Shown in pieces: positions 22,301 through 56,265 of a DNA stretch of 64,000 nt. The notes under the pieces were generated by a model. That model was not told the origin of the DNA, made no database searches, and saw nothing but the letters and a program-made list of their open reading frames with translations. Position 1 is the first letter of the stretch; each line of letters begins with the position of its first letter. This DNA is from Argopecten irradians (taxonomy: Eukaryota > Mollusca > Bivalvia > Pectinida > Pectinidae), in NCBI RefSeq assembly GCF_041381155.1, contig NC_091139.1:6014383-6078382 (forward strand), read 5' to 3'. The position numbers and the translations under genes are program-made.

Positions 22301-23263
22301 TCATGATAATTCTAGTAAACTTTGCCATTTTACCCATTTCCTGTCAAATTTAACTTTCAGTATATTATCACTAATTTGTATATTAAATTTCTGAATATTG
22401 TACTGATCTTTAATATGATTTATGAAAGCTGTGATGGATAATGGTGTTTTTAGACATCTGGACTTATATATATACCATTTAATCATAAGAACTATTTCAT
22501 TATCAATTTCGCTATTTGTTACTCTATTATGAAATCCGAAAAGCAATGTTTCTTTATTAAATCTAAAGGGAATTAGCAGAGCATCAATAAAATATTCCAA
22601 AGTGTTGTAAAACTCTTGAATTTTGTAACAGTTCCAAAATGCGTGCTCAATAGTTTCTATTTCATCATTACATAGCGAACAAAAAGGGCTTTCTGTAATA
22701 CCTAATCTAAAAAGATGAACATTTGTTGTAAGTATATGATGGTTTATTCTATACTGTAGCCACTGCAATTTTGTATTTTGAGACACAAGAAAAGGGGTTC
22801 TATAAATCATTTTCCATTTATCATTGTCAAAGTTAAAAAAGTCTTCCCATTTTTTCCGTCCTGTTGCAATAGTATCATTTGAACTGAGTATATTGTAGAA
22901 ATCTTTTGCACCTTTTTTACTCTTAAAAAATAATCTAAGATATATTGGCATATAAGGGAAATTTAGAGTTACATTTGTCAGATCATGATTGGCAATATAT
23001 CTTCTAACACTAGTAGCAATGCCTTCAAACTGGAGAAAGTTGATGTTTAAATCATACCGTTGACAAAATTCGTTGAAAGTATATAAAATATTATCTTTTT
23101 TTATGAAATCATTAACTACAGAAATCCCTTTTCTGTACCAATCGTGATAAAAAATACTTTTGTTTTCAATTTTGAATAAATTAAAATTTAATTTGAATAA
23201 AATGGGTGTTTTCAATAGTGATTCAACACATTTTTCCAGTGACGTATTTTTTTGTTCTAACAT
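22301..23263 (-). pseudogene. LINE ORF2 C-terminal domain
   Basis: A 320-codon open stretch forms the C-terminus of the LINE ORF2, including TRKPFLVSQ-like LVSQNTKLQWLQYRINH and the zinc-binding CSLCNDEIETIEHAFWNC. It ends at a stop at 22301. The same domain recurs, more decayed, on the minus strand around 33200-32750, where FCNLCNSERESIIHLFWEC is visible. Confidence 0.85.
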
Positions 23264-23274
23264 ATACCAAGCTT

Positions 23275-24911
23275 TTAAAACATCTTTCCAAAAAAGATTT
23301 TTACATTTTTTTCACAATAAAAAATATATTCATTTCCACAATATGCTAGTTTATTCAAATCAATAAATGTGTTAACAATGGTCTTATATTTACTATCTCC
23401 AGTGAGAAGTCTCCTTATCCATGTTAGTTTTAGAGAAGCAATGAAAGAATTAACATGCACCATATTAAGACCCCCTTCATAATATTTCTTAATTACCACA
23501 TCTCTTTTGATTTTGTCAGTTTTACCATTCCAAAGGAAGTTGAAAAGTTCTGAATTTAGTTTTTTAATAAAATCATCACTAGGATTAGGTAAAGAGATGA
23601 ACAGGTGATTGAATTGAGATATTAGTAGAGATTTAATAACATGTATTTTACCTATGGGTGTAAGGATTCTTCTTTTCAAAGACTGAATAAGAGATTTTAA
23701 TTTAACAAGTTTTTTATCAAAATTTAGCTTTGGTATACGATGAAGGTCAACATGGAATTCTATGCCAAGGAGAGTAAACTTAGTATTTCCCCATTTTAAA
23801 TTCCACTCAGGATAGAAAATTTCATCACTATATTTTTTATTGCCAATCCAAATTATTTGAGTTTTGCTAGAATTTATTTTCAAGCCAGATAATTTAGCAT
23901 ATTCTTTTAATTCTTTCATTGCTTCTTTAAGAGACAATTTTGATCCATCTAAAATAAGAGAGGTGTCATCTGCATATTGCGATATTAAAATTGGCTGATT
24001 TTCTACACTGATGCCTTTTATGTTATTATTATTTCGAATTCTGATGGCTAAGATTTCTACACAGAGAATAAATATATATGGAGAAATAGGATCTCCCTGA
24101 CGGCAACCACGTTTGATTTCAAAAAAGGTGAGAGATAGCCCCCTTGATTGACTGCTGAAATTGCACTATTATTTAAAATATTTACCCATTTTCTCAGACT
24201 ATCTCCTAATTTAAAAAATTTCAATACATTGTCCATAAATTTCCAATCAACTGAATCAAATGCTTTTTCAAAGTCAATGATAAGTAACATACCCGATAAA
24301 TCATTTTCGTCTGCAAATTGCATCAAATCATATAATCAATCTAGAATTTTCACCGATATATCGACCCGATATAAAACCCGTTTGATCTTTATTAATCAAC
24401 TTATCTAAAACAAGTTTTACTCTATTTGCTATTGAACCAGACCCAATTTTGTATATAACATTTAGAAGAGAGATAGGTCTCCAGTTTCTGAGAAATTACT
24501 TGGGCTTTGAGTTACCGATAATTTTCCATTACTATATTCAAAATTTAGTGATCTAACAATAAAATGACCTAAGAATTTCCAAAAACATTTAAAAAATTCA
24601 ACAGTGAAGCCATCCGAACCAGGACTTTTCTTATTTTTCATGTTTTTTAAAGTTTTTGCTGCTTCACTGTATGTAATAGGACCTTCTAATTTATTAGATT
24701 CAGAGTTATCTAACCTGGGTACTTCACACTGAAATAAGAAATCATCTATGCTTTTTTCTTCAATATCTGCATTATTACCAAATGAATAAATTTCTTCAAA
24801 AAAAGATCTAACTTCATTAAGTATTTCATCCTGTTTTGTAACTATTGTCCCATTATCTTTCTCTATTTTTGGAATGATTTTAGATGTAAAATTTCTATTT
24901 TCCAAATTCAA
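23275..24911 (-). pseudogene. LINE ORF2 reverse transcriptase region
   Basis: The region covers several frames. It has KKSPGSDGFTVEFFKCFW (finger, about 24640), RPISLLNVIYKIGSGSIANR (about 24460), GFISGRYIGEN, IDFEKAFDSVDW (motif A, about 24265), RGCRQGDPISPYIFIL (about 24110) and QYADDTSLIL (motif C with YADD, about 23965). KLSGLKINSSKTQIIW, LLGIEF, and NFLWNGK follow. Catalytic Asp residues of motifs A and C are retained, but frame changes separate them. Confidence 0.85.
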
Positions 24912-25296
24912 AAAGTAACTTGTTGGTTTTTCCCCCTCATCTAGCCATTTTGCTTTTGATCTTATAATACTCCCCTTGATTTTCTTTTCTCTTATTTTTT
25001 CATTTCTTCTTTCTTTTCATCCAATCGCATAAAATCTATATTATCTTGGTCTTCCAAAAGCTTAATTTCATCATATAATAGTTTTTCTTTTTTATCCTGT
25101 TGTTTTTTCTTAAATGACGAATAAGAAATAGTTTTGCCTCTTATTTCAAGTAATAGAGTTTCTAAAAATAGTTGATCATTAATTTGAAATTGTATATGGT
25201 CATCAGGAATTTGGTCAAGTTTATCTAAATTATATATTGGGACAGCATATTGTTTTTTTATGTCTAAAATGAGTTTCTCTATTGTTTTAAGATATT

Positions 25297-26088
25297 CTAA
25301 GTCATGAAGAAGTAGATTGTTAAATTTCCATAATCCCTTTCCTTTTGTAAAATCATTAAACTTGAATAATTAACTGGACTAGAATGATCTGATCTGTACC
25401 CAGGCTCGATATCTGAGTGATTAATACTAGGTAATAAACTTTCAGAGACCAGGAAGAAATCCAAACGTGCCTGCTTTCTAAGGTTCCTTTTTCTCCATGT
25501 ATATCTACGAGTATGTGGATGACTGTCTCTATAAATATCTACTAAGTTAAGCTTCTCCATCAATTCTTCAACCCTCTCCCTAGCCCTTGGATTATTTACC
25601 TGTTTGTAGCTATCATCATAGTCTAGGTCCGAATCAAGTATTAAATTAAAGTCCCCACAAATTATATAATTACCATGGAATTCATTCAAAGTGTCTGATA
25701 TATTGCTATAAAAACCTGGTGAATCTGTGTTTGGACCATAAAGTGTCAGCAAAGTTATTTTTGTGCCCTCTATTTCTAGCTCTAAATAAAGAAAATTACC
25801 AGTCATGTCTTTTTTCTCTCTCAAAATTTTAAAATCAAAATTATTATTGAACAGAATAACCACCCCTCTAGAATTTGACTTATAAGAGCTAAAACAACAT
25901 TCAAAACCCCATTCTGATCTGATAATATTTTCAATGTCTGTAGTAAAATGCGTGTCTTGGAGACAGCATATATTGTACTGTTTACTTTTTAAAAATGTAA
26001 AAACATCTTTTCTTTTATTTTTATCCCCTAACCCTTGACAGTTTGCAGAGATTATTTTGATACCTTCCATAGTACGGTTATATAGCAT
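25297..26088 (-). pseudogene. LINE ORF2 endonuclease domain
   Basis: A 263-codon open stretch begins MEGIKIISANCQGLGDKNKR. It shows the APE-endonuclease landmarks ISANCQGL, CLQDTHF (usually QETH, here with Asp), LYGPNTDS, IICGDFNLI, TWRKRN, RLDFFLVS and the terminal GYRSDHS. It would nick target DNA during target-primed reverse transcription. The frame is lost shortly after SDHS and the protein continues in another frame as a GKGLWKFN linker. The Met at 26088 fits the usual ORF2 start because the endonuclease begins within ten residues. Confidence 0.85.
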
Positions 26089-30225: not shown

Positions 30226-31757
30226 AACTGACCAGAGCCTAGCTACTAAGTACCTGGTATTCCCGTCTCCTAAAGTCTTGCCCAATCCTTATAGACTGCC
30301 TGGTCATGTGACTAATCAGCTAGATCCTCTAAACCCTTTATAATCTAAACTATGCACACGCCCCCACCCTGACCCCCACCCCACATGCATGACTCCACTC
30401 CCTTTCTACCATCACTGCCCTTCCTTGTCCAGACCCTATAGAAATTAATTATAGCCCCAGGCTGAATAACATTCCCCTGTAAACTCTCCTGTCCAGAACA
30501 TACTAATGACATCATCCCTGACTGTTTTGATCTCAAATAAACCTCCTGTCAAACTCTCCTAACTAAACAAAGCTATGTCTTATCTGACACCCTCATCCAA
30601 TTCTATTTTCCGACCCCCTCCTCTTCCCCATGTGTCTGCATTAATGCCCTGATTACAACATAAGGCAAACATGTACAGTACAACATGTAAATCACAAGTT
30701 ACAGAACAAATATTAATATAGGTGAAAAGTATATATTGTATTGTATATCAACAAAAATTAAACAAATTTACATTTTGTCAGATATGCAAGAAAACACTAA
30801 CTCTGGTTTAATTGATAGATCTTATATATAGGTATAACTTTTATTTTAGGGACAATCTTATTTACCAGGGGTACCACCTCAACCGGTATCAAGTTTAAAT
30901 CCTCTGAGTACCTTTTCATTTCAGAAAATTATTTAATTGATCTATCAATTATCTTAATTGGGGGTAAAATTGTTGTTTGCAACCATTTGATTGCCTTGTA
31001 ACCAGTTGTTTGTAATTCTTAAGTAACTCCAAACATATTAACATATGTTAATTAGTATCTTCAGAAAACATATTACAATAAAATATAATCAAAGGTAAGT
31101 AATCTACAAAACAACATACATTATAGGAGCAGACATTGGGGTGGTGGAAGTGCTGGTAGACTCTGTTCAAAGAATTATGAAACTGACCAGAGCCTAGCTA
31201 CTAAGTACCTGGTATTCCCGTCTCCTAAAGTCTTTCCCAATCCTTATAGACTGACTGGTCATGTGACTAATCAGCTAGATCCTCTAAACCCTTTATAATC
31301 TAAACTATACACACGCCCCCACCCTGACCCCCCACCCCACATGCATGACTCCACTCCCTTTCTACCATCACTGCCCTTCCTTGTCCAGACCCTATAGAAA
31401 TTAATTATAGCCCCAGGCTGAATAACATTCCCCTGTAAACTCTCCTGTCCAGAACATACTAATGACATCATCCCTGACTGTTTTGATCTCAAATAAACCT
31501 CCTGTCAAACTCTCCTAACTAAACAAAGCTATGTCTTATCTGACACCCTCATCCAATTCTATTTTCCGACCCCCTCCTCTTCCCCATGTGTCTGCATTAA
31601 TGCCCTGATTACAACATAAGGCAAACATGTACAGTACAACATGTAAATCACAAGTTATAGAACAAATATTAATATAGGTGAAAAAGTATATATTGTATTG
31701 TGTATCAACAAAAATTAAACAAATTTACATTTTGTCAGATATGCAAGAAAACACTTT
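30131..31757. repeat. Tandem segmental duplication with a 290-bp difference
   Basis: The 575-bp segment beginning ACTGACCAGAGCCTAGCTAC recurs nearly unchanged at about 30224-30796 and 31181-31757 (offset 956). Each is preceded by CTCTGGTTTAATTGATAGAT (30131 and 30802). The second unit contains about 290 bp (30890-31180) missing from the first. The few substitutions indicate a recent event. Minus-strand open frames at 30345-30536 and 31271-31492 are copies of each other and not credible genes. Confidence 0.88.
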
Positions 31758-32044: not shown

Positions 32045-33243
32045 CTGCTTTATTTTTTTGTAATTCTTTTATTTTTCCAAAGTGTCATTTCATCAACACA
32101 GTAAATAAATATATGATATTTACACGCAATCATACATACTTCCTCACCATTATTTTCAATTCTGTAATCATTACTACACTTTTAATTCAATTTACTCACT
32201 GTGACATTCTCTCTCTCAATCATACTGGGTTTAAGATAAAAACAAAAAAAAAAAAAAACAAAAAACAGAAAAAAAGACCATAGAAGATATGTATATAAAA
32301 TAGTTTGAAAAATATTTGGGGAAAAAACAGGAAAGAAAAAAATATATAAAGAGTTGTATTTATATATATATGGTGCATTTATATATTATGAGGACAAGGA
32401 TATATACAAAAAGAGCATCCATTCCAAGACACATACATACACTCACACAAACTTTCATTATCTTACACACCAAACACACATTAACACAGAGAAGAAGCAG
32501 AAGAGGAAAAGAAGAAGATGTGAGATGAAAAAAAGAACTACAAGTGTAGGATTATTTCTTTAAGCTAAAATTAATTAAAAAAAGTTGTGAAATTATTGAG
32601 AAACTGGATGGTAGGTAAAGTAACAGTATGTTTATTATAAAACCATATATAACTATATTTTAGAAGCAAATATTATTATTTCCTTCTATTCATAATTAAA
32701 CTGTATTAATTATATATGTTGCCATGTCGGAAACTGGGGTTTACACAAGAATTTTATTTAAATTTCATGAAAAAAAATTGCATGTACACATTCGAATGGG
32801 GAAACTATTTATTTCTTCTATATACACACATTGCCTTCAAATGCTTACAATCTGTATTAATTTATTCCATTTTTTCCATTCAGCTAAGAATTTAGTTTTT
32901 TTCTTTCTCCGTTTTGTTATTGACGCTATATTTTTGAACTTTATAATGATCATAAATGCAATATAGTAGAGAATTAATATTTAATGATTTGTGTTGGCAT
33001 CTACATCCGTAGAATCATATATGTATTAATGAATTGCATAAAATCATTTAGATATCCAAAAAACATGTTTTTTAATTCAGTCTAAATGGAATAAATAAAG
33101 CATACAATAATCTGTCAAATCGTTCGAGAAGGTTTTGAACTTGATCACATTCCCAAAACAAATGTATAATAGATTCCCTCTCTGAGTTACACAGATTACA
33201 AAAAATATTGTTTAGCAATTTAACAGAAAGGAGTCTGCTAAGG
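32045..33243 (-). mobile_element. 5'-truncated Tx1/L1-type LINE tail
   Basis: On the minus strand, FCNLCNSERESIIHLFWEC and LLYALFIPFRLN (about 33200-33080) match the C-terminal zinc region of the LINE at 21950-26088. More decayed terminal helices follow, then a long A-rich 3' UTR. The 3' end reads GGAAAAATAAAAG (about 32060-32072), as in the larger copy. The break at about 33243 abuts the duplicated NXPE promoter sequence, so either the LINE inserted at, or the duplication broke at, this point. Confidence 0.75.
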
Positions 33244-34125
33244 TATAAGGCAACATATGCCCCGCCTTTCAGTCGCCGCGATAGCCAATGAGAGGTCTTG
33301 TTACTTAATCCGCTGGGTACCTCACAGCATCATACAATGAAAGCGACATTATCAACACCTGTTGTATTTTGACAGTAAACGGTGTTTTCATTACATGACT
33401 ACACAAATAATTGTTATATCCATACAAGACGTGCGAAATTGACATGTTGAAAACGTTATAACTTTAATGCTTGGATTTACCCAAGCTCAACGACATTTAT
33501 TTATCTATGATAAATTTTCAAATATATTCTATACAGTCGGAAATTGCTTACTTTAGAAAGTATGCTTTTAAATATGGTTTGCGAATGATTTCATGTTTAC
33601 TTTGTTAAAGGGCCCTACATATAGTTATACCACGGTCATTTAAAGTATATTGTTTCTGTACTCGGTATTTAAAGTTGTGCCTATATACAAGGGATACTAT
33701 GGGCGTTAACGTCCGATGGTTCTTTCAATTGATTATATTATGTTTTGTTTCAACATCTTTCATCTTCATTTTCTCAAATATGTCTAGATCTAAACGGTTT
33801 GTATTTAACATATTTCTCTTTCTTACCAATTTACCTTTTTTTACTTTTTACTCAATAGTTTCTGCAATCAAACTAATTCTGAAAAATCTCAAATGTGATG
33901 TCTAATTGTATCTGAAAATTCGACTGACGAAGTGAATTATTGATTCATAGTTGTCCATTATTGATGAGTATTATCAACTTTAATGAATATGAACTCGCAA
34001 TTGACAAGATATCAAGTTATGTTTTAATTGGGATTTCTTTAAACATAACTGGAAGCTTGGTAATGCTACAAATTGATAAATATATTATTTTTTACATGAT
34101 ACACACACTAAGCTATACCATTTGA
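33244..34125 (+). pseudogene. Truncated NXPE-like gene fragment: promoter, exon 1, intron 1
   Basis: This segment is a close copy of 46835-47640 at the 5' end of NXPE-A. It keeps the TATA-like TATTTAAA (33666-33673) and exon 1 (33699-33796, 98 nt, MGVNVRWFFQLIILCFVSTS..., one residue different from NXPE-A). It also keeps the donor CG|GTTTGT and most of intron 1. The exon 2 acceptor is lost (ACAG became ACAT near 34098), and only about 27 nt of exon 2 remain before the 32-bp satellite begins. It cannot make an NXPE protein but may still carry a promoter. Copying was recent, judging by the near identity. Confidence 0.85.
33666..33673 (+). promoter_or_regulatory. Candidate TATA box of the truncated NXPE copy
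   Basis: TATTTAAA lies 26 nt before the ATG at 33699; in the intact paralogue NXPE-A the same motif lies 51 nt before its ATG because of a small insertion. Conserved surroundings support a shared core promoter. Confidence 0.4.
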
Positions 34126-36408
34126 TACTATCCAGATAATAACTTGTACGTACAAGATACTATCCAGATAATAACTTGTACGTACAAGATACTATCCAGA
34201 TAATAACTTGTACGTACAAGATACTAACTTGAACGTACAAGATAATAACTTGTACGTACAAGACACTATCCATATAACAACTTGTAAGTACCAGATACTA
34301 TCCATATAATAACTTGTACGTACAAGACACTATCCAGATAATAACTTGTACGTACAAGACACTATCCAGATAATAACTTGTACGTACAAGACACTATCCA
34401 GATAATAACTTGTACGTACAAGACACTATCCAGATAATAACTTGTACGTACAAGACACTATCCAGATAATAACTTGTACGTACAAGATACTAACTTGAAC
34501 GTACAAGATAATAACTTTTACGTACAAGATACTATCCAGATAATAACTTGTACGTACAAGACACTATCCAGATAATAACTTGTACGTACAAGACACTATC
34601 CAGATAATAACTTGTACGTACAAGATACTATCCAGATAATAACTTGTACGTACAAGACACTATCCAGATAATAACTTGTACGTACAAGACACTATCCAGA
34701 TAATAACTTGTACGTACAAGACACTATCCAGATAATAACTTGTACGTACAAGACACTATCCAGATAATAACTTGTACGTACAAAACTATCCAGATACGTA
34801 AAAACTTGTACGTACCAAGAACTATCCAGATAATAACTTGTACGTACAAGAACTATCCAGATAATAACTTGTACGTACAAGATACTATCCAGATAATAAC
34901 TTGTACGTACAAGAACTATCCAGATAATAACTTGTACGTACAAGATACTATCCAGATAATAACTTGTACGTACAAGATACTATCCAGATAATAACTTGTA
35001 CGTACAAGATACTATCCAGATATAACAACTTTGTACAAGTACTATCAGATAAAACTATCCAGATATCATATAACAACTTGTAAGTACAAGATACTATCCA
35101 GATAATAACTTGTACGTACAAGATACTATCCAGATAATAACTTGTACGTACAAGACACTATCCAGATAATAACTTGTAAGTACCAGATACTATCCAGATA
35201 AAAACTTGTACGTACAAGATACTATCCAGATAATAATTTGTACGTACAAGATACTATCCAGATAATAACTTGTACGTACAAGACACTATCCAGATAATAA
35301 CTTGTACGTACAAGATACTATCCAGATAATAACTTGTACGTACAAGATACTATCCATATAACAACTTGTACGTACAAGATACTATCCATATAACAACTTG
35401 TAAGTACAAGATACTATCCATATAACAACTTGTACGTACAAGATACTATCCAGATAATAACTTGTACGTACAAGATACTATCCATATCATAACTTGTACG
35501 TACAAGATACTATCCAGATAATCACTTCTACGTACAAGACACTATCCATATAACAACTTGTACGTACACGATACTATCCAGATAATAACTTGTACGTACA
35601 AGACACTATCCATATCATAACTTCTACGTACAAGATACTATCCATATAATCACTTCTACGTACAAGATACTATCCATATCATAACTTGTACGTACAAGAT
35701 ACTATCCAGATAATCACTTCTACGTACAAGATACTATCCAGATAATAACTTGTAAGTACAAGATACTATCCATATAACAACTTGTACGTACAAGATACTA
35801 TCCATATAATAACTTGTAAGTACAAGATACTATCCAGATAATCACTTCTACGTACAAGATACTATCCAGATAATAACTTGTACGTACAAGATACTATCCA
35901 TATAATAACTTGTACGTACAAGACACTATCCATATAATAACTTGTACGTACAAGACACTATCCATATAACAACTTGTACGTACAAGATACTATCCAGATA
36001 ATAACTTGTACGTACAAGATACTATCCAGATAATAACTTGTACGTACAAGATACTATCCAGATAATAACTTGTACGTACAAGATACTATCCATATAATAA
36101 CTTGTACGTACAAGATACTATCCAGATATAATTTGTACGTACAAGATACTATCCAGATAATAACTTCTACGTACAAGATACTATCCATATCATAACTTGT
36201 ACGTACAAGATATTATCCATATAATAACTTGTACGTACAAGATACTATCCAGATAATAACTTGTACGTACAAGATACTAACTTGAACGTACAAGATAATA
36301 ACTTGTACGTACAAGATACTATCCAGATAATAACTTGTACATACAAGATACTACCTTGAACGTACAAGATAATAACTTGTACGTACAAGATACTATCCAG
36401 ATTGACGG
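34125..36408. repeat. 32-bp satellite array with a palindromic core
   Basis: About 70 copies of a 32-bp unit made of TACTATCCAGATAATAA plus the perfect palindrome CTTGTACGTACAAG and GA. Variants include CCATATAAC in place of CCAGATAATAA, CTTCTACGTAC and GTAAGTAC. A 26-bp form lacking the TATCCAG part occurs near 34220, 34485, 36275 and 36350. Long mirrored open frames on both strands are artefacts of three units making 96 bp. A short relic of the same satellite lies in intron 1 of NXPE-D (43611-43722). Confidence 0.95.
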
Positions 36409-36640
36409 CTATATTTACTCCTAGTTTTGAAATTTCTGTCGTCAACTACACAAAAAGTTCCCCAGGAGGTCGTTGATTCCGTCTCAATTATTAGCCTATA
36501 GCTTCTGACTGTATATATTTTAAAAAAGTAAGTTGAAAAAAATATTTTATACGATTCTGTTTACGTTTATATATTGATGCATGTTACTCGTAAATGGCAA
36601 ATTAATCAAAATATAGACGTTATGACGTCATTTTTCAACA
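36404..36640 (-). pseudogene. Truncated NXPE-D-like 5' end (promoter and start region)
   Basis: The sequence from ATTGACGGCTATATTTACTC to about 36640 matches 44952-45180, the start-codon and upstream region of NXPE-D, with shared blocks such as GGAGGTCGTTGA, ATATTTTATACGATTCTGTT and ACTCGTAAATGGCAAAT. Read on the minus strand, the start codon is altered and only about ten coding bases remain before the 32-bp satellite. It is the partner of the NXPE-A-like fragment on the other side of the array. Confidence 0.8.
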
Positions 36641-36771
36641 GATAGTTTTTAATCCCTCGATTGGTAGGTTGTAGGTGATGTTTGTGTTCCAATAGGGCAT
36701 TTTTTGAAAGATCGTGCAGTTGCCGTGTTACCAAATTGAAGGTTCACATACTGGTTGTAAATTTATGATTA

Positions 36772-37035
36772 ATTAAGGATTAACATGGATAATTTTTTTC
36801 ATGTTATGGAGATATAATACAAAAATCTGAGTACTCTAAATAAAACGTAAAGCGATTTATGATGAGAGCGCACTCAGATTTTTGCGTTATATCTCCATAA
36901 CATCAAACATATACTCAAATTAATCCTTATAATCAATTTACTAAAGTCTCTTTCATCATTACGCCGTTATCTCAGCCAATCAGAAGCGACGTTACAAATG
37001 GCGACATCCTTTTGTCCTTTATGGGTTGATAAAGT
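36772..37035. repeat. Foldback repeat, copy 1 (NXPE-cluster family)
   Basis: CATGTTATGGAGATATAATA with CAAAAATCTGAGT (36800-36833) pairs with ACTCAGATTTTTGCGTTATA and TCTCCATAACAT (36871-36903). The downstream part CAGCCAATCAGAAGCGACGT (about 36972) recurs in the copy at 62835-63110. A third copy lies in intron 2 of NXPE-A (49125-49400). Confidence 0.8.
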
Positions 37036-38263: not shown

Positions 38264-41200
38264 TGATTTGCCTCAACTTTAAAACAAAACATTACTTGAA
38301 ATTCGTTGCTTGTTATCTTAGTTCAGGTTCCTGAAGAGATGATAGTTATATTTTATTTAGTAATGATATTTACAGATGGTTAAAAAATGCTAAAACTGAA
38401 ATTAATAAATTGAAGCAATGATGAAAAAATACTTACTTTCCAAAATATTCAGCACGGCTACTGTTTTCTTTAAGTTCCTATAATTTCTGGAACAAATGAA
38501 GAACATTAGGGTAATGCACCACTCTTCTCTGATTCTTTCTACCTATAACTGATCATATAAAAGAGTAAAAACTAAATACTTCCTTTCTTTCAATATGCTA
38601 GTCCTGTCGGACAATTGGGTGACATGGAGCTCTTTATTTTGCATACGTGGACGAGGGTATATCAATCGTGTTGACGGAATATCATTGGACATATCTCAAA
38701 AGGTGTAATTGTTTAATGCTAAATATGGTGTTATGCACTTTTCTTCATCATAAATACAGGGTTGCGAAACACAATTTATAACATACTTTAAAGCTTGACC
38801 AAAACATTTCCACTTGGCAATAGATTATACTTATTCCTTTTAGACGTTTCTTCTCAGGGCTTTAAACCATTTCAAGCCATTGTCTTGCAATGACGTAGTC
38901 AGTCAAATGTGTGTAGTATTAATTACTTACTTTCATAAACCAATATTGTTTATGAATCACACCAACTTAATATCGTTGGTCCTGCCCATCAAGCCCCGAT
39001 GAATTCAGCAAAACTGATTTCAAAATTGTGATACTCTGTCATGAAGGGAAGCTTGTTTGTGTTTGTTTTACATACTATCAACGAACAGCTGTATAAGCAA
39101 TTAAGGATGTGAAAGGAAAACGAAAACCAGAGTTCCAGGAGAAAACCAACAACTACTAATATGACCACAGGTAAGTAACTGACAACTGTAAAACCGGGAT
39201 GGGATTTGAACTCGAAACTCAGAGTTTAAAAGATACATTAGTGGTAACATGTTAGAAAATCTTAACACTCGGCCATCACGACCCCAAAAGGGAAATTGTC
39301 CCATGCTAAAGATTCGATTCGATGGACTCAGCAAAACCGCCCTCATAAGCTCCATTATATCTATGTTATATAGTAAAGGTTTCATTGAAAATGAAGGGGA
39401 AGTACTTTTCAGAAAAGTCGTTGAAATCAACAAACCGTTATACAATCTCGTCCAATGTGGATGATTCTAGCTGAATGTAGTAAAATCAGCGGATATAAAG
39501 AAGAAATTGTTGTGCGAATGAATATTATGTTGCTTCGATATTTGCAAGAATTTCAGGTCAAGACATTTTGGCAAGAAATTGACCAAGTCAACCTCCGATC
39601 CATATTTCTTGGCCTGCAATTCAGATTATTGCATTTTGCCCAATATGTAGATGATAAACTGCGATCCTCTATGGCTTTGGATTGATTCATATGTTGAAAC
39701 ATTACAGTTTACTCTACCCAAATAGGACAAATTACTAACCGAAAAAAGGATTCGTGTTTTTGATTGCATGCATAAATTCCCGATCCTTCGTAAATAAACC
39801 AGTCTTCACAGTTCAGGGATTCTGGTTTTCCACAGAAATAGGGCAAGTTGAAGTTTTTAGAGGTGAAGTTGCAATATTTTTGTACATCTGGAATATTTGG
39901 AACAACGCTACACGACGTGGTCTCATTCACGTTATGTCTTTTAAACACGGCTCTTTGAAATTCAAGCACTCCATATCTCTTAACAACATTCACATAAATC
40001 CCGATGTGCTCTTTTATATTTCCAATTGAAAACATTAGTTCTGGATTACCAGCCCAAATAGCTTTGACGAACCCGGTGTATGAACCATTTCCGTGGTCGA
40101 TGACATATCCGGCGACCGAGGCCTTGAGAGTGGTTTCCCGGAGCCAGACTCTGAGCATGTCACCCCCTACTGTAGCACGTTCTCCTCGTCCATTGTACAA
40201 CACTATATCAACTATAATCTCATCTCCAACTCTGAACTTTGTCCTCCGGACACTGACCAATGAGGTTGATATATTCACCAAGGAGGGATAATTATCGAAG
40301 TCGGTATATTGAAGAAAGTCATTTATTCTTTCAAGCGCCCTATTCGGGATGGTAAGATTTGAACCGTATTTGGAATTGACGACTCTGGTTCTAAGTTGAT
40401 ACAACCTGTAAAATGTCAAAACAAATCAATGATAAAATCATTAAAATACGAGTTAAGCCGTTATAATTGAAATGACGAATTAATACAAATTATAAAAATG
40501 TCCTTGAAACTATTTAATCTTGTAAACCCAAAACATTTCAGAAGAATCGCAATCGAATCAATCAATTATGAATGTATAATTTTGTATCTATCATAACTAT
40601 ATACCAAATCGTAACTGCATTAACTAGAATTGAATAGTCTGGTTTTCACAGGTTAAAGGGACAATTCACTCAGGCTAATTCTTTTACATAACCAAGAAGC
40701 AAAATATGGCATAAATGTATTGTTCTACATTTCTTATGAAACATATAACGTAAAACATTGACAAATTCCACGACATTGTTAAGTATTTTAATTAATATCG
40801 TTGAAACAACAAATCGTTGATCAATGCGACTAAGCAGGTACAATATGGACGCTGTACCCATACCCGAGCCAAAGTCACACACGTAAAATAAATAAACTAC
40901 ATAACCACTGAGAAGGGTATAAAATGATTTTAGGCAAGACAATTCACCTGATAAGGTAAAAACACTACTGTCAAACCGATTTGAGCAGTTCTAGATAAAA
41001 ATTGCATTACTCGACGAGCAAGGATCAGGGTTCGGCATACAAGAAGTTCGACCACAATGTGTAATGGCGGACAGCGAGCGAGTTTGAACATCTACATACA
41101 TGTCACAAACATGGGCTTTTCAGGCATATCACAGTAAAACCGACTGATCTAATTTCCATTAGAACTGGGTTTTTTCAATATGTAATGTTCCCTTAGACTG

Positions 41201-44200
41201 AATTGTCCCTTTAATGAACATCTCTACAATTTGATTTCTAGTTAGCTTTGAGTGTAGCTTTACACATGGACATCCATACAATTTGATTGCTTGGTATTTT
41301 TGAGCGTAGCTTTACAAATGGATATCGAAACATTTTGATTGGTAGGTATCTTTGAGTGAAGCTTTACAAATGAATACCCATACAATTTAATTGGTAGGTA
41401 TATTTGAGTGTAGCTTAGACAGATATCCACACAATTTGATTAGTAGGTATATTTGAGTGTAGCTACATTGTAGACATAGGGGTATCAATACAATTTGATT
41501 GCTAGGTATCTTCGAGTGTAGCTTTACACATGAAAATCCATATAATATGATTGCTAGGTATCGTTGGGAGTGGTTTTATACATGGGTATCTATACAATTT
41601 GATTGCTAGGTATCTTCGAGTGTAGCTTTACACATGAAAATCCATATAATATGATTGCTAGGTATCGTTGGGAGTGGTTTTATACATGGGTATATATACA
41701 ATTTGATTGCTAGGTATCGTTGGGAGTGGTTTTATACATGGGTATCTATACAATTTGATTGCTAGGTATCGTTGGGAGTGGTTTTATACATGGGTATCTA
41801 TACAATTTGATTGCTGGTATCTTTATTAGTAGCTATACACATGTATATTCATATAATCTGATTGCACGGTATTCTTGCTTGTAGCTTTACACATGGATAT
41901 CCACACAATCTGATTGCTCGGTATTCTTGCTTGTAGCTTTACACATGGATATTCAATTGATTGCTTGGTATCTTTATTGTAGCTTTACACATGGATATCC
42001 ATACAATCTGATTGCACGGTATTCTTGCTTGTAGCTTTACACATGGATATCCACACAATCTGATTGCTCGGTATTCTTGCTTGTAGCTTTACACATGGAT
42101 ATCCACACAATCTGATTGCTCGGTATTCTGGTTGTATCTTTACACATGGATATCCGTACAATCTGATTGCTCGGTATTCTTGCTTGTATCTTTACACATG
42201 GATATCCGTACAATCTGATTGCACGGTATTCTTGCTTGTATCTTTACACATGGATATCCGTACAATCTGATTGCACGGTATTCTTGCTTGTAGCTTTACA
42301 CATGGATATCCGTACAATCTGATTGCACGGTATTCTTGCTTGTATCTTTACACATGGATATCCGTACAATCTGATTGCTTGGTATTTTGCTTGTATCTTT
42401 ACACATGGATATCCGTACAATCTGATTGCACGGTATTCTTGCTTGTAGCTTTACACATGGATATCCACACAATCTGATTGCTCGGTATTCTGGTTGTATC
42501 TTTACACATGGATATCCACACAATCTGATTGCTCGGTATTCTTCCTGGTATCTTTACGCATGGATATCCACACAATCTGATTGCTTGGTTACCCACACAA
42601 TCTGATTGTTTGGTATTTTGGTTGTAGCTTTACACATGGATATCCGTACAATCTGATTGCTTGGTATTTTGGTTGTAGCTTTACACATGGATATCCACAC
42701 AATCTGATTGTTTGGTATTTTTAGTGTAGCTTCACACGTGCTGTTTATTATGAATATATCAACTTGAAATCAGTAATCGTGTCTTCTAGATTCAAACCGA
42801 TGTAATGGAAACAATTACGTACTGGTTTACGTTTACATCTGTTGCAGTTTCCTTATTGACAAAAAATCTCCGTGCTGGAACGAACATTGGCCAAAACAAA
42901 CCTTTATGACTTTAAACAATTTATTGTGAAAACTCGGATTTAAATCAAATGTATGTCAGCAAATATTGATATTGTAATATATGGTTTCTGCAATTTCTTG
43001 TTTTGTACAATTAATATTTTTCAAACAGAGATTAAAATGTATTACTGTCGGAATATTCAGGACCCGGATGCATTTAACTTCACATCGCAATTTTTAGACC
43101 CGCACGTTAACGTGTATTGATATCTTTTTTTCCCCTTTTTTTCCCCTTTTTTGATAATGTTGAAGGAACAATTAAGTAAAGCTTGTTCTGTTACATAACC
43201 ACGTAGCAACATATGGCATAAACGTAATGTTCTATATTTCCTATGAAACATATACACATAAAATATCGGAAAAAAACCCCGACATTGCGAAATTTTGTAG
43301 TTGAAATTCCAAATCGTATAGCAATACCGTTCAGCAAGTATAAAATGTACGCTGTACTCATACCCGAGCCAGTGTCAGGTAAGAAAAAAAACATATCACC
43401 ACCGAGGAGTTGATGAAATTGTTTTTTAACAGGTGCATGCACATAATATGGTTACCCCTCCTCCCCCCTCCCCCCTCCCCCTCATTCTTTACTCCATCAA
43501 TAAGGCCGGGTCAGAGTTCGGCAAACAAGACGTCCGACAACAACGTGTAATGGCGAACGGCGATCAAGTTTGAACATTTCCCACACATACACCATAGTGG
43601 GCTTTTCACCTGATACTATCTTGAGGGTACAAGATGATAACTTGTAAGTAGAAGATAATAACTTGTACGTTCAAGATACTATAAGTTGTACATACAAGAT
43701 ACTAACTTGTACGTACAAGATAAATAAAATTATACAGTGGCCCTAATACGCCGCTGTAAATTTCAGATTGGTTGCAATTGTGAGAATTAAATAAGAATCG
43801 AAACATTTTGTATCAAACGCTATAAAATATAAATAATCACGGTATTTATATGTATTTTATTTGCTTAAAGTCAGCTTAGCAAATTATTATAGTATTATTA
43901 CATACATTGTATAGGTATACATGTAGGTACAGGGAGTCAATTTAGTGGCCATCTTAGAATATGGAAAATGGTGTTCTTTCTACATTAAGTTTACACTACC
44001 AAAAACAATTTTTGCTAGATCACTTACAGAGTGAAATAGGGAAACATCTTTTTTTAAACAGCCATCTGGGATTTCAAAATGGCGCTCATTTTGAAATTAA
44101 AACAAGACTCAAAATATTCATGTATCAAACAGTAACGCCTTTTACGATCATGCAGTGAGCAGCAGGTAATTCTAACATCCTACCTCAGTGAAGGCGTTCC

Positions 44201-44965
44201 TTAAAACTAAGCTCATAAAACAGCTCAGTGAACAGATGATACCATTCATTAAATATGACCTAATTTATGCACGTGACCTAGCCAATGTGACCCTAGGATG
44301 TAAAAACATCTTAAGCAGGTCATGTCATGATCCATATGCAGTGCTAAACATCAATTTGAAGCTATCAAATATGTGAAAAATCCTAGTTTTCAGCAAAAAT
44401 ATTAAAGTTTTTAATACTATAATAGAATAAATGCTTAAATAGGTCACTGTGACCTACTTTTTGAATTGTCCATCAGTTTTGTGAACTGAACTTCACAAAC
44501 CCAATATTTACAGGCAAAACCTACAAAAAATGTTATCTTTATTCTAATATTTAATTAATTTGGACTTAAACAATGAAAATGTGAATTTTCATCTTTTGAC
44601 CTTTGACCTCTGAAATTACCATAAGCGCAGAAAAAATCGGATATTCTGAATAGCATACAATTTGCAGCTGACACTTATGTATCTTCATGCAAAATATTTT
44701 GCTTGTCACTGAGTGGCCGTAAAACCGGCCTAAGTGATACCCCTCCTTTGTTAACCAATATACCAATCCACAAACAATTGCAAACTGTTCAATGTAAATT
44801 TTCTGAAATTGACAAAGATATAATGATAAAAATCTGTTTAATCTTAATTATATTGAATACAAACCGCTTAATGTTGTATGATGATAAGAAGGTAAACCAG
44901 ATAAGTGGTAATAAAGTAGAGCCAATGATAATCCATTGTAAACAAATACGGAGATTGGCGGCCAT
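37408..44965 (-). CDS. NXPE-D: NXPE-like protein, four exons, 536 aa
   Basis: Exons on the minus strand: 44965-44865 (101 nt), 40405-39740 (666 nt), 38486-38437 (50 nt) and 38201-37408 (794 nt, stop TGA). All junctions keep phase and have GT..AG introns. The total is 1611 nt, 536 aa, the usual NXPE size. Residues about 10-27 (QWIIIGSTLLPLIWFTF) form a signal anchor, so the protein should enter the secretory pathway as type II. A neurexophilin-like domain follows, then a PC-esterase domain with GDS (Ser338), Asp503/506 and His517. The family is thought to act on glycans as an SGNH-type acyl enzyme; the substrate here is unknown. The start at MAANLRIC gives the 101-nt exon 1 shared with NXPE-B and -C; an in-frame Met lies upstream. 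Intron 1 (4.5 kb) holds satellites and a TTAA transposon. A candidate AATAAA lies at 37250-37255. Confidence 0.85.
39740..40405 (-). CDS. NXPE-D exon 2: neurexophilin-like domain
   Basis: 666 nt between acceptor TTTTACAG and donor CG|GTTAGT. It encodes about residues 34-256. It has the Ig-like core VGDEIIVDIVLYNGRGERAT, then GGDMLRVWLRETTLKASVAG and DHGNGSYTGFVKAIWAG. The C-terminal part is cysteine rich (CSVVPNIPDVQKYCNFT, FCGKPESLNCEDW). Several N-glycosylation sequons (NLT, NIS, NGS, NET, NFT) agree with a lumenal or extracellular location. The first sixty and last hundred residues differ clearly from the paralogues, while the core is almost identical at DNA level. Confidence 0.9.
40653..41214. 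mobile_element. 554-bp TTAA-flanked MITE in NXPE-D intron 1
   Basis: TTAA (40653-40656) precedes AGGGACAATTCA, and TGAATTGTCCCT (41199-41210) is followed by TTAA (41211-41214). This gives perfect 12-bp inverted ends and a TTAA duplication, the insertion signature of piggyBac-type elements. The interior has no transposase. A decayed relative in the same orientation lies at about 43150-43605. Confidence 0.85.
41220..42738. repeat. 52-bp minisatellite in NXPE-D intron 1
   Basis: Units contain TTTACACATGGATATCC, then TACAATCTGATTGC and CGGTATTCTTGCTTGTA. Spacing is exactly 52 bp in the homogeneous right part (for example 42191, 42243, 42295 and 42347) and looser, about 55-65 bp, in the older left part (41220-41870). 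Around 28 copies are present. Apparent open frames across it are repeat artefacts. Confidence 0.92.
43150..43605. repeat. Decayed relative of the 554-bp TTAA element
   Basis: Shares TTACATAACCA, ATATGGCATAAA, CATACCCGAGCCA and a GTGTAATGGCG block with 40657-41210 in the same order. The right end is cut where the 32-bp satellite relic begins. Confidence 0.75.
43611..43722. repeat. Relic of the 32-bp satellite in NXPE-D intron 1
   Basis: Three or four decayed units with AACTTGTACGT and ACGTACAAGATA match the 34125-36408 array. The relic lies about 1.1 kb inside the gene from exon 1. Confidence 0.85.
44160..44660. repeat. Probable dispersed repeat with a steroid-receptor-type palindrome
   Basis: AT-rich sequence with AGGTCACTGTGACCT at 44441-44455, a perfect AGGTCA inverted repeat with three-base spacer. 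GTGACCTA and TTTGACCTTTGACC also recur nearby. It lies in intron 1 of NXPE-D close to exon 1. Its status as a repeat is inferred from style only. Confidence 0.35.
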
Positions 44966-46739
44966 ATTTACTCCTGGTGTTGATGTTTCTGGCGTCAACT
45001 GCACAATAAGTTTCTCAGGAGGTCGTTGAATCCGCCTCAGTTAACAAACTACAGCTACTGACTGTATATATTTTAAAAAGCAATTTTGAAAAAATATTTT
45101 ATACGATTCTGTTCACGTTTATATAGTATACAATGTACGTCATTGATGCATGAAACTCGTAAATGGCAAATAAATCAAACCAGGCTACGCTTTTTACGCT
45201 CGAGATCCGCCATAGGCCTATATCACGCATGATGGACGCTTTTCCCGATACAATCAATTTATAAAATATAAATGTCTGGAACACTCAAGATTGCTTTTAG
45301 TGATCAATGAAGAATGTTTGTCTTGTGAAATATTTCGTCTATTATTAAGTTCAACACTGCAAATTTTAAATTGCTAGACGTTTAAATCATGTCATTATCA
45401 AACTAATGAATTTCAAAAAAATTCTCCAACTTAATATTATGCTACATGATCGATAATTTGATCAATTGCGGGATAGCATGATTACATAACTAATTGTTCT
45501 AACCATACAAGATGTGCGAAATTGATATATTGAAAACGTCTCTCATCACCTTAACAAGCGGTCAATCTAAAAATCGTAAAGCCAGTATCCAGACTGGAAG
45601 TAACCAAATAATGCTTAAAAACCAAAGTTGTAGATACTTGGAACAGTTTCAGAAAACGTAATGTCTGCAGAGGCTGAACTTTTTTAAATCGCGACTTAAC
45701 CAGAACTGGTACAATGAACCCTCCAAATTATCTTCTACTTGTTACAGTGCTACCTGATCGGTTATTTGATCATATACAAGGATACGCCTCCAGAAGGCCT
45801 TACTGACAAAATACAAGTGTTGGTATCGTTCGTGACCTATCAACTGATGTCGCGGATCATGATCAGTAGCTACCTAGATAGGTGAGTGACCCGATACAGT
45901 AATTAGACAATTGAAATATGTTATCTCGGCTACGATTGGTCGGGATAGCTACGTAGGCGTTGCAACGATACGAAGAACAATATTTCACGAAAGAGTAAAT
46001 TCAGAAAATACAACACTGCCACATCTTTTTAATCGGTATTATCAAACATATCACCTCTATATAAGTCTTAGTCACAACAGTCTTTTCCATTGTAAACAAA
46101 TTTACACAAATCCACATTTCTCCAACAGATTAGGAAGAAATGAATCTTTGATTTCTATGATTGCATTTGATTCAGTAAAGAAAAAATTGTAATTAAATTC
46201 AACAATATCCAACATTTCTAGAATAAACTGATTATCCTTTTGAATTCATGTCTAAATTATGTTTGTAAGTACATTTCGACTCGCATCTCCGACACGGTTC
46301 ACTTGGCCGCCGTGATGCTTCTTATTACTTTACCATATTTGGAATAACGTAAGTTTACACACAATTTTTTTAGCAGAAGAGATGATTTCACAGATTTTTT
46401 TTACTCAAGTTTGAAAAATTATTTTGGATACCCATAGGATACTGGTACTTATTAAGTTTCACAATTGTCTATTCTGAGTTTGTTGACTTTTTTTATTTCG
46501 AAACTTTTTACTTGTTGATTGTTTCATTTCGTCACGGTTTCCGGTAATTCACACATGGCGTTGTATTTGAACAGAATTACTTTTTTGTTGCGTTTGCCTT
46601 GGATTTTGTCACTTATAATTGACGAAACAGAAAATCCGCAGATTTGTTATTTGAAAATTGACTTTTTTAATACATTACAATTACATATGGGTATTATCCG
46701 GGAAATATATTTGTATTAGCCCGAATGTGATCACATCGG

Positions 46740-46859: not shown

Positions 46860-47150
46860 TGCCCCGCCTTTCAGTCGCCGCCAGTGAAAGTGACATCCCC
46901 GATACCGATTGTATTTTGACAGTAAATCGGTGTTTTCATTACATGACTATAAGACGTGCGGAATTGACATATTGAAAACGTTATAACTTTAATGCTTGGA
47001 TTTACCCAAGCTCAACGACATTTATTTATCTATGATAAATTTTCAATTGCTTTTAAATGTGGTTTGCGAATGATTTCATGTTTACTTTGATAAAGGGCCC
47101 TACATATAGTTATACCACGGTCATTTAAAGTATATTGTTTCTGGACTCGG

Positions 47151-47158
47151 TATTTAAA
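47151..47158 (+). promoter_or_regulatory. Candidate TATA box of NXPE-A
   Basis: TATTTAAA lies 51 nt before the chosen ATG and is conserved in the truncated copy at 33666. Spacing would put transcription start near 47180. Confidence 0.4.
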
Positions 47159-47208
47159 GTTGTGCCGGAGTGACTAAGCCTACGAGAGTAATATATACAA
47201 AGGATACT

Positions 47209-50200
47209 ATGGGCGTTAACGTCCGATGGTTCTTTCAATTGATTATATTATGTTTTGTTTCAACATCTTTCATCATCATTTTCTCAAATATGTCTAGATC
47301 TAAACGGTTTGTATTTAACATACTTCTCTTTCGTTTACTTACCAATTTACTTTTTTACTTTTATTAAATAGTTTCTGCAATCAAACTAATTCTGAAAAAT
47401 TTCAAATGTGATGTCTAATAGTATCTGAATATTCGACTGACGAAGTGAATTATTGATTCATAGTTATTGTCCATCATTGATGAGTATTATCAACTTTAAT
47501 GAATATGAAATCGCAATTGACAAGAGCTCAAGTTATGTTTTAATTGGGATTTCTTTAAACATAACTGGAAGCTTGATAATGCTGCAAATTGATAAATATA
47601 TTATATTTTACAGGATATACACATTAAGCTTTAACATTTGTGGATACGAAACGAAATCTACGATTCCAAACTGGTCGTTGGAAAGGGTGAATGAATATCG
47701 CCAATTTACCGACCTAGACATTCTGTCGTTAGTGAATATGTCAACATCAGTCGTTAATGTTCGGAAGACTGAGTTCAGAGTTGGAGATGAGATTATAGTT
47801 GATATTGTGTTGTATAATGGACGAGGAGAACGTGCTACAGTAGGGGGTGACATGCTCAGAGTCTGGCTCCGAGAAATCACTCTCAAGGCCTCGGTCGCCG
47901 GATACGTCATCGACCACGGAAATGGTTCATACACCGGAATCGTCAAAGCTATGTGGGCGGGCAATCCAGAACTGATGTTTGCTATTGGAAATACAAAAGA
48001 GCACATCGGGATTTATATGAATGTCGTTCAGAAATATGGAGTAATAACATTCCTAAAAGCGGGATTTAAAAATAAGAATTTGACAGAGAACACATTGTGT
48101 AGCGTTGTGCCGAATATCCCAGATGTTACGTTGTACTGTAACTTTACAGCGCACAACTTCAACATGTCCTTTTTCTGTGGGAAACCCAAAATATTGACTT
48201 GTGCAGACTGGTCCGTTTATGAGCGAACGGACATCCATTCATGTAACAAGAAACATGATTTGATATTTCGGTAAGTTATGTAATGATATTCTTTATCAAA
48301 TGAAAATTATTACTCTATTAATTTCGGTCGTACAAATCGCTTTGCAACATTCGTTATAACATAATAAACATAAATTTCCAACTGGTATGTGTATCTTCAA
48401 TTTGGTACATGGCAACTGCACTATTTTTTTAATTGCTTTTGTCATACATTCCATGCCCCATTAAGACCACCACATACATCACCTACAACTTTGCTCTCCT
48501 TTTATTTACAATATATTTTCTTTGAACAAGAAAATCAACCGGAACGACAGACACAATCATTTACATTTTGGTATTCGCCTTCAAAATTATACTACCGTCA
48601 TGTTTATGCATACACAACAGCCATTCAGAAAAAGCGCGCCGTTGACTGCAGCTTAACCCCACCCTTTTCTCCATGACATCACAAAAATAGTGCCTATATT
48701 TAAGTTATTTTAAATAGATCAAATAGCAATAACACATTTAAAATAATAAATCTGTTTTATTGTATGTCTCCGATTATTTCGTACATGTGTTACATTGTAT
48801 TTGTAAACACTGACACATGGTAATTTGGAATGTCAAAAGAAATCCGCCAACATGTTTACATGTACAAATTGTATTCATACGCACTGAATAGTGTCACGTT
48901 CTGCACTCAAGTTATTGGGAAATAAATTGATCTGTCCCAACTTAGTTTATCGATACAGACACAGTAGCAATTCTAAATCTTAGAAAATGGCGCCATAACG
49001 TTCAATGTAGTAATTTTCACATTCATCTTACATTAACTTTGGTCTCCAATTCGCTAACTTAAAAACCTTTATATTTTGCATATCTTGAATTTCTTATCCC
49101 TGTACGCATAATCCGTAATTATTAAAGGATTACCTTTAATTGATTTCTCTTATGTTATAAAGATATAACACAAAATTCTGAGTGTGTACTCAGCAGTTTT
49201 GATGATGATTGTACGCTCTGAATTTTGTGTTATAGCTGAATACTATACCGAATAAATTTAATCCTTGTAATTCAATACACTACAAGCTCATTAGGTGACT
49301 CTTTTTCTATAAAATCATTACGACATTATATATTATTAAGTCTATTATAAACGACATTACATAAAACGACAGCACCATTGCTTTCCTTAATGGACTGATA
49401 AAGCACACATTCCAGCCAATGAAAATGCTCGTTTAAAACTATTTTTAATTATGGAAGGTTATATACTCTATAAAGTGGAATTGCGTCGCTCTCTGTAATC
49501 TTGAAAGAAAGTTTCTGCTGGCCTGTGATTGGCCAGTTTTCTTCTCCTGAACTGCCTTCAGTTTTACTATAAGATATTCAGGGATGAAAGCTTTAAAGCA
49601 TCGAGGATGAGATAAATAGTCAGATTGCCGGATAACAACAATAAACACTTTGGGCTCAGTTTTAAAATTGATAACGAAATAAAATTTAAGATTAAATGTG
49701 TATGTCAATTGTGTGGCTAACAGAAAGTAAACAAAGGTGTAGTGTGAAACGCCATTACCAAGTTCCATGTTACAGTATCTACTCCAAGTACATGCAGGTT
49801 ATTATATTAACCAGGCAAATATTTACCGAAAAGATTTGTCAACATGAAAGGAGATTAATAGAATCTTACATGGCTCTGTCAAGTGGACAGGGATATCTCA
49901 ACCCGAGAGAAAGAGTTTGGCTTGTTAAAATTGGTTTCGAGAAAGTTTTAAATTTTGTTCCTGAAAGGTAGTGGGCCTTTAATTCTGGCGAACAAAACAT
50001 GGTAATTAACTGAAATCGTTCTAATTGGTTGAATAAAAAAATTCAATTTTTTCGACCATCTATAATACAAACCTCGCAAAATAAAGAAATGTAAAAAAAA
50101 AAGCTTTTTAAAATGCAGAAACCTACTCCAAGCTATGCAGACATAACTAATAAAAGTGTAATCATCTTTCAATCGTCTATTGCATTTAGCTATTTTAACG

Positions 50201-56205: not shown

Positions 56206-56265
56206 GTGTATGACGTCGTGGATCAATAAAATATGAACCAATTATGACAAGGGAAGCAACTACAT
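56206..56265. other. Downstream sequence of NXPE-C
   Basis: Contains AATAAA at 56225-56230, 20 nt after the terminal codon of the decayed exon 4; a likely ancestral polyadenylation signal. Confidence 0.4.

What the first reader, a model, noticed from the sequence alone, without database searches (positions are those of the whole stretch)
33244..36640. A 32-bp satellite array bounded by two broken NXPE gene starts
On the left, an NXPE-A-like promoter and exon 1 points into the array and stops 27 nt into exon 2. On the right, an NXPE-D-like promoter also points into the array and stops at its start codon. In the intact locus these promoters point away from each other. The array thus sits on a rearranged duplicate of the divergent pair, with two potential promoters firing into about 70 palindromic repeats from both sides, a layout that could make double-stranded RNA and small RNAs.
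Basis: partly seen in the sequence, partly recalled or inferred. Interest (0 to 1): 0.75.

Follow-up and report, generated by a model that had tools for sequence, protein, structure and literature searches.

The report
Palindromic minisatellite between two pseudogene heads
In what looks like an animal (perhaps mollusc) genome, a 2.3-kb run of about 70 palindromic 32-bp repeats sits between the broken front ends of two NXPE-type genes; the repeats most likely grew from a small repeat cluster of the kind still found in a neighbouring gene's intron, so this is probably ordinary gene-cluster decay rather than a purposeful RNA-making locus.

Summary
A 32-bp array (34124-36402, 72 palindromic cores) lies between an NXPE-A-like promoter, exon 1, intron 1 and 26-27 nt of exon 2 on the left and an NXPE-D-like promoter on the right, both pointing inward; the parent pair is divergent. 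Corrections: the left copy has lost its splice acceptor; the right copy runs 11 nt past its start codon, which reads ATA. The flanks differ in divergence (95.1% and 86.7% identity, p=7e-5), so a single duplication of the pair is not supported. No inversion is needed. The array has a likely local source: NXPE-D intron 1 carries five 21-23-bp units (43609-43723) that match the right edge of the array better than any other part. A ragged zone at 34771-35077 may be a recombination point or an assembly join; the evidence that the halves differ is mixed. The unit is so palindromic that either strand alone folds strongly, so two promoters are not required for dsRNA; transcription is untested. Best reading: a minisatellite expanded between two NXPE pseudogene heads. 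Ordinary in kind, with a testable small-RNA possibility. Species not identified; no genome or reads were available.

The parts
33339..34123 (+). NXPE-A-like fragment: promoter/5'UTR, exon 1 (33699-33796, open, donor GT kept), intron 1, 26-27 nt of exon 2; acceptor AG at 34096-34097 reads AT. Weaker likeness reaches left to about 33241
   Evidence: 684 of 719 identical to 46886-47639
34124..36402 (.). 32-bp quasi-palindromic minisatellite, 72 cores; 58 of 71 spacings 32 bp, 8 of 21 bp
34771..35077 (.). irregular zone: 4 of the 5 spacings that are neither 21 nor 32 bp
36249..36372 (+). right edge of the array, the part most like the NXPE-D intron mini-array
36399..36610 (-). NXPE-D-like fragment: 198 bp upstream, start codon position 36412-36410 reading ATA, and 11 nt beyond
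   Evidence: 183 of 211 identical to 44952-45179
33090..33245 (-). LINE remnant (zf-RVT, below Pfam's gathering score) abutting the left fragment
   Evidence: PF13966 E=9.5e-5, 23.4 bits, cut-off 27.5
43609..43723 (+). mini-array of five 21-23-bp units in NXPE-D intron 1, likely source type of the array
44865..44965 (-). NXPE-D exon 1 (relative of the right fragment)
   Evidence: 101 nt, open, donor context G|GTTTGTATT as in A; 69% match to a third exon 1 at 60795-60871
47209..47640 (+). NXPE-A exon 1 (47209-47306), intron 1 and the first 27 nt of exon 2 (relative of the left fragment)
43159..43608 (.). partial copy of a MITE, ending where the intron mini-array begins; the copy at 40653-41214 has 19-nt terminal inverted repeats

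Best explanation
This is a decayed stretch of an NXPE gene cluster in which a minisatellite has grown. An older duplicate of the NXPE-D 5' region, with the small intron-1 repeat cluster that D still has, lost the roughly 1.2 kb between its exon 1 and that cluster. The cluster then expanded: a 9-bp gain in a 23-bp unit gave the 32-bp unit, which spread by unequal exchange or slippage, perhaps helped by its hairpin-forming palindrome. Separately, and more recently by divergence, a fragment of an NXPE-A-like gene came to lie on the other side of the array, possibly through recombination within the array. The two promoters face each other because the D-type gene reads leftward and the A-type gene rightward, and each fragment kept that strand. 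Shown: homologies, orientations, lesions, divergence difference, likeness of the right edge to the D intron cluster. Inferred: order of events, mechanism of expansion, direction of the 9-bp change, and that the locus has no function.
For: Of all 150-bp windows at 5-bp steps along the array, those at the right edge score best against the D intron mini-array (142; median 98; left edge up to 124; best on the reverse strand 86); the alignment covers the whole mini-array with one 9-bp gap and shares a CATAC core found in 1 of 72 array cores. The order in D (promoter, exon 1, mini-array, reading leftward) is kept at the array's right side with a deletion between. Both fragments are broken: acceptor lost, start codon lost. 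Identity 95.1% against 86.7%, p=7e-5. Promoter and intron of the A fragment diverge alike (16 of 297 and 14 of 298 mismatches, p=0.71), so no sign of constraint on the promoter.
Against: The left edge of the array also carries 21-bp units and scores above the median, so the D-intron origin at the right edge is favoured, not proved. Exon 1 of the A fragment is still open and 97 of 98 identical to A, though not significantly better than the intron (p=0.13). Gene conversion could make the A fragment look younger. Only one window of one assembly was available.
Confidence: 0.62

Rival explanations
1. Assembly artefact: two separate arrays of this repeat, one beside an A-like fragment or allele and one beside a D-like fragment, were joined by the assembler at the irregular zone 34771-35077.
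For: 4 of the 5 irregular spacings lie in this 0.3-kb zone, and left and right units differ at position 16 (C in 12 of 17 against 6 of 37, p=0.00016); the flanks differ in divergence; 4.9% mismatches and 8 gap events between the A fragment and A might be allelic in a very heterozygous species (heterozygosity point recalled).
Against: Both flanks belong to the same NXPE cluster, which a random join would rarely give; the 32+21+21 block with the CTTGAACG core occurs on both sides of the zone; mean unit differences between the halves (2.11) do not exceed those within the right half (2.29).
Confidence: 0.2
2. Functional small-RNA locus: inward transcripts, or one transcript folding on itself, make dsRNA; read-through also gives RNA antisense to NXPE-A exon 1 and 5' region or to the NXPE-D 5' region, silencing the intact genes in trans.
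For: One piece of each strand and length folds far below dinucleotide shuffles (320 nt: z about -19 on both strands, 30 shuffles; 1000 nt: about -21 and -18, six shuffles); the A fragment is 95% identical to A; Drosophila satellites are transcribed from both strands into piRNAs (PMC8321551, abstract and passages).
Against: No expression data; no constraint seen on the promoter copy; the D fragment keeps only 198 bp upstream; strong folding follows from any palindromic unit.
Confidence: 0.07
3. The array is the central repeat of a mobile element (HINE/Helentron or MITE), as for abundant satellite-like arrays in oyster, inserted between the fragments.
For: In Crassostrea gigas the 13 most abundant array clusters studied (49% of arrays detected) were central repeats of 11 HINE elements (PMC7492417, abstract and passages); the D intron mini-array abuts a partial MITE copy.
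Against: The array here runs directly into NXPE exon sequence on both sides, with no element module seen.
Confidence: 0.08

Closest known systems
Minisatellites grown from intronic or cluster-local repeats (general kind, recalled)
   Same: Short unit, likely local origin, shorter unit forms kept near both ends of the array
   Different: Unit is nearly all palindrome (26 of 32 positions match its reverse complement) and the array is bounded by two gene heads facing each other
HINE/Helentron-borne satellite-like arrays of Crassostrea gigas (PMC7492417, abstract and passages)
   Same: Short array within an assembled gene region
   Different: No left or right element module; flanks are NXPE gene fragments; unit 32 bp, whereas 160-180 bp units dominate the oyster satellitome, which ranges from 21 bp up (PMC8268682, passages)
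Drosophila hairpin-RNA loci (PMC10292708, PMC10317233; search listing with start of abstract only)
   Same: Self-complementary sequence next to copies of another gene
   Different: The self-complementary part is the repeat, not the gene copy; no small-RNA evidence
Dual-strand satellite piRNA loci of Drosophila (PMC8321551, abstract and passages)
   Same: Tandem repeat that could be read on both strands
   Different: There the transcripts come mainly from large heterochromatic blocks, and dual-strand clusters do not necessarily need promoters; expression here is unknown

Membership tests
Minisatellite/satellite-like tandem array | Head-to-tail copies of one unit well beyond chance | tested here: met
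NXPE gene family (flanking cluster) | Neurexophilin and NXPE4_C domains in the cluster's exons | tested here: met
   5 of 7 frames given hit PF06312 (3) or PF24536 (2) above cut-off; the other 2 gave none
Functional NXPE gene (the two fragments) | Start codon, splice sites and coding exons intact | tested here: not met
   A fragment lacks its acceptor and all but 26-27 nt of exon 2; D fragment reads ATA for ATG and ends 11 nt later
HINE/Helentron element | Left and right modules with subterminal inverted repeats and a 3' palindrome around the array | tested here: not met
   array abuts NXPE exon sequence on both sides; a separate search for subterminal repeats was not made
hpRNA / small-RNA locus | Long self-complementary transcript | tested here: inconclusive
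   the sequence can fold; whether it is transcribed could not be tested
hpRNA / small-RNA locus | Small RNAs made by Dicer or bound by Piwi | not testable with these tools
   no RNA data
Single duplication of the divergent pair | Equal divergence of both flanks from the parent pair | tested here: not met
   95.1% and 86.7%, p=7e-5; gene conversion not excluded

The most novel reading that the evidence does not exclude
The locus is a self-made RNA-interference source for its own gene cluster: read-through from either broken promoter passes an array that nearly equals its own reverse complement and then runs antisense through the other fragment, so that the array supplies the dsRNA trigger and the pseudogene heads supply the address (NXPE-A exon 1 and 5' region, NXPE-D 5' region).
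Probability: 0.05. Interest if true: 0.75.

Novelty: new member of a known kind. Interest (0 to 1): 0.3.

Why it matters
One window holds a small intronic repeat cluster and what looks like its expanded, altered relative next to a broken copy of the same gene, a usable case for how short satellite arrays start in gene clusters. If the RNA reading were true it would link satellite growth to silencing of a paralogous gene family in a non-model animal.

Tried and rejected
Whole-genome search: no genome is held for the window. Repeat patterns: 0 hits in viral contigs; in genome contigs 10 stretches with one match each, all titled as bacteria and read as chance, loci L001-L010 not studied further. 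NXPE last exon in viral contigs: 1 stretch matched a pattern, none confirmed. Rfam at gathering threshold: 0 matches in the window. Literature: NXPE with bivalve, 0 papers; NXPE with five mollusc words at two of six terms, 16,779 papers, none of the 20 listed holds NXPE; NXPE with gene family expansion, 1 mammal paper, listing only; intronic minisatellite / satellite DNA / mollus at two of three terms, 140 papers, none of the 10 listed holds 'intronic minisatellite'; satellite DNA with 'transcribed from both strands' and small RNA, 5 papers; hairpin-RNA terms, 11 papers, 6 listed. No search for the repeat unit in other animal genomes was possible.

Considered and rejected: constraint on the 14-bp core as a protein site. 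Core variation is lower than linker variation (mean 0.025 against 0.053 over 58 units of exactly 32 bp; the 13 others were left out), but the linker figure rests mainly on positions 16 and 25, and the numbers of distinct variants are alike (7 and 9). The 21- and 32-bp spacings are near two and three helical turns (10.5 bp per turn, recalled); noted, not taken as evidence.

Full report
Observation. The window holds a cluster of intron-bearing NXPE genes; an animal is implied and a mollusc, perhaps a bivalve, is my guess from recalled repeat types, not tested. The 32-bp array spans 34124-36402 and holds 72 cores within three mismatches of the 14-nt palindrome CTTGTACGTACAAG; the whole window has 80 such hits (72 array, 5 mini-array, 3 elsewhere) against 2.46 expected from shuffles. 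Of 71 spacings 58 are 32 bp, 8 are 21, 3 are 31, one is 34 and one 82. The 32-bp consensus matches its own reverse complement at 26 of 32 positions, and the array aligns to its own reverse complement from position 12 to 2274 of 2,279 at 72% identity with 98 gap positions.

Flanks. On the left, 33339-34123 aligns with NXPE-A 46886-47639: 684 of 719 aligned bases identical, eight gap events. The stretch 33241-33338, where A lacks about 65 nt, was left out of that count. The fragment holds promoter, an open exon 1 (97 of 98 identical), intron 1 and 26-27 nt of exon 2, but the acceptor AG reads AT. Of the larger gaps, A lacks a 23-nt piece that a similar block upstream of D (45477-45539, 87% over 63 bp) partly retains, so the fragment is not simply a copy of A as it is now. 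On the right, 36399-36610 aligns with 44952-45179, 183 of 211 identical, two gap events, covering 198 bp upstream, the start codon (ATA for ATG) and 11 nt beyond. D exon 1 (44865-44965, 101 nt) is recognised by its likeness to A exon 1 in reading and donor context and by a 69% match to a third exon 1 at 60.8 kb. D and A start codons lie 2,244 bp apart, divergent. Pfam names Neurexophilin or NXPE4_C in five of seven frames given. I did not model full transcripts, so 'intact' means open exons with splice sites where I looked.

Is it one duplicate of the pair? The mismatch fractions differ significantly (35 of 719 and 28 of 211, Fisher p=7e-5). Outside the fragments, the flanks match the D-A intergenic region only by the 40-bp motif at the left end (22-27 bp, E=0.002) and by short pieces at E of 0.02 or worse. 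One duplication with equal clocks is therefore not supported; gene conversion of the A side remains possible. No inversion is involved, as both fragments keep the strand of their relatives; a head-to-tail run of divergent pairs would place an A-type and a D-type gene face to face by itself.

Where the array came from. NXPE-D intron 1 holds five palindromes at 43620-43719 with spacings of 21, 21, 23 and 21 bp. When 150-bp windows were slid along the array in 5-bp steps, those at the right edge gave the best score against this mini-array (142; median 98; left edge up to 124; reverse strand best 86), and the alignment covers the whole mini-array with one 9-bp gap that separates a 23-bp from a 32-bp unit; a CATAC core, found in 1 of 72 array cores, is shared. 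The order promoter, exon 1, mini-array is the same in D and at the right side of the array, with about 1.2 kb missing between. I therefore read the array as an expanded D-intron cluster. Pairs of 21-bp units with the CTTGAACG core occur at four places, two in the first 400 bp and two in the last 150 bp, as expected if ends keep older units.

Seam. Four of the five spacings that are neither 21 nor 32 lie in 34771-35077. Of seven unit positions tested, two differ between left and right (17 and 37 units; the 4 in the zone set aside): C at position 16 in 12 of 17 and 6 of 37 (p=0.00016), T at position 25 in 2 of 17 and 16 of 37 (p=0.03, which would not survive correction for seven tests). Units are related by duplication, so p-values overstate the case. 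Against two distinct arrays, the mean unit difference between halves (2.11) lies between those within the left (1.13) and right (2.29) halves, and the CTTGAACG block occurs on both sides. The zone may mark recombination, decay, or a join by the assembler; only reads can tell.

RNA reading. Each strand folds strongly alone, from one piece per strand and length: 320 nt z about -19 on both strands (30 shuffles); 1000 nt about -21 (plus) and -18 (minus) from only six shuffles, with median pair spans of 451 and 225 nt. So one promoter would suffice for dsRNA, and two-sided transcription is not needed. Nothing here shows transcription. The A-fragment promoter has diverged like its intron (16 of 297 and 14 of 298, p=0.71) and its exon 1 is not significantly more conserved (p=0.13), so no constraint is seen. 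In Drosophila, satellites transcribed from both strands give piRNAs (PMC8321551, abstract and passages), which makes the idea reasonable but not specific.

Known kinds. In Crassostrea gigas the 13 most abundant array clusters studied (49% of arrays detected) are carried by HINE elements (PMC7492417, abstract and passages), while another study of that species also found satellites that mostly stand alone (PMC8268682, passages). Here both sides of the array run straight into NXPE exon sequence, so I do not place it among HINE elements, although the intron mini-array abuts a partial MITE copy. The main text of PMC8268682 has no hit for '32 bp' or 'gtacgtac'; this says little, since monomers are mostly in supplements or figures.

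Verdict. The description is accurate with small corrections. The most likely meaning is an expanded minisatellite in a decaying part of an NXPE cluster, with about a 20% chance that the join is an assembly fault and 5-7% that the locus is a real small-RNA source; these odds are judgements, not computed.

Noticed in passing
11471-13239: 155/156-bp tandem arrays followed by a GACGGACC-type microsatellite, a layout recalled as typical of bivalve HINE/pearl elements.
   Followed up: no
5709-9842: Tandem units of about 490 bp, 2.8 copies at each of two places, with 84-bp sub-duplications nearby.
   Followed up: no
40653-41214: MITE with 19-nt terminal inverted repeats (95% complementary); a partial second copy at 43159-43608 (69% identical) ends where the 21-bp mini-array begins.
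   Followed up: partly
41225-42737: 52-bp tandem array in NXPE-D intron 1, just beside the MITE.
   Followed up: no
22301-26088: LINE-like open frames on the minus strand; endonuclease-, reverse-transcriptase- and zinc-binding-like stretches read by eye, no family search made.
   Followed up: no
53780-56210: A further NXPE copy whose middle and last exons appear frame-broken, judged from split matches and short frames.
   Followed up: no
36757-36941: Short palindromic element right of the D fragment, with partial relatives near 49.1 and 62.9 kb.
   Followed up: no
30373-31628: Direct repeat spaced 956 bp, 100% identical over the 300 bases shown and 98.8% over an overlapping 256: likely a recent duplication.
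   Followed up: no
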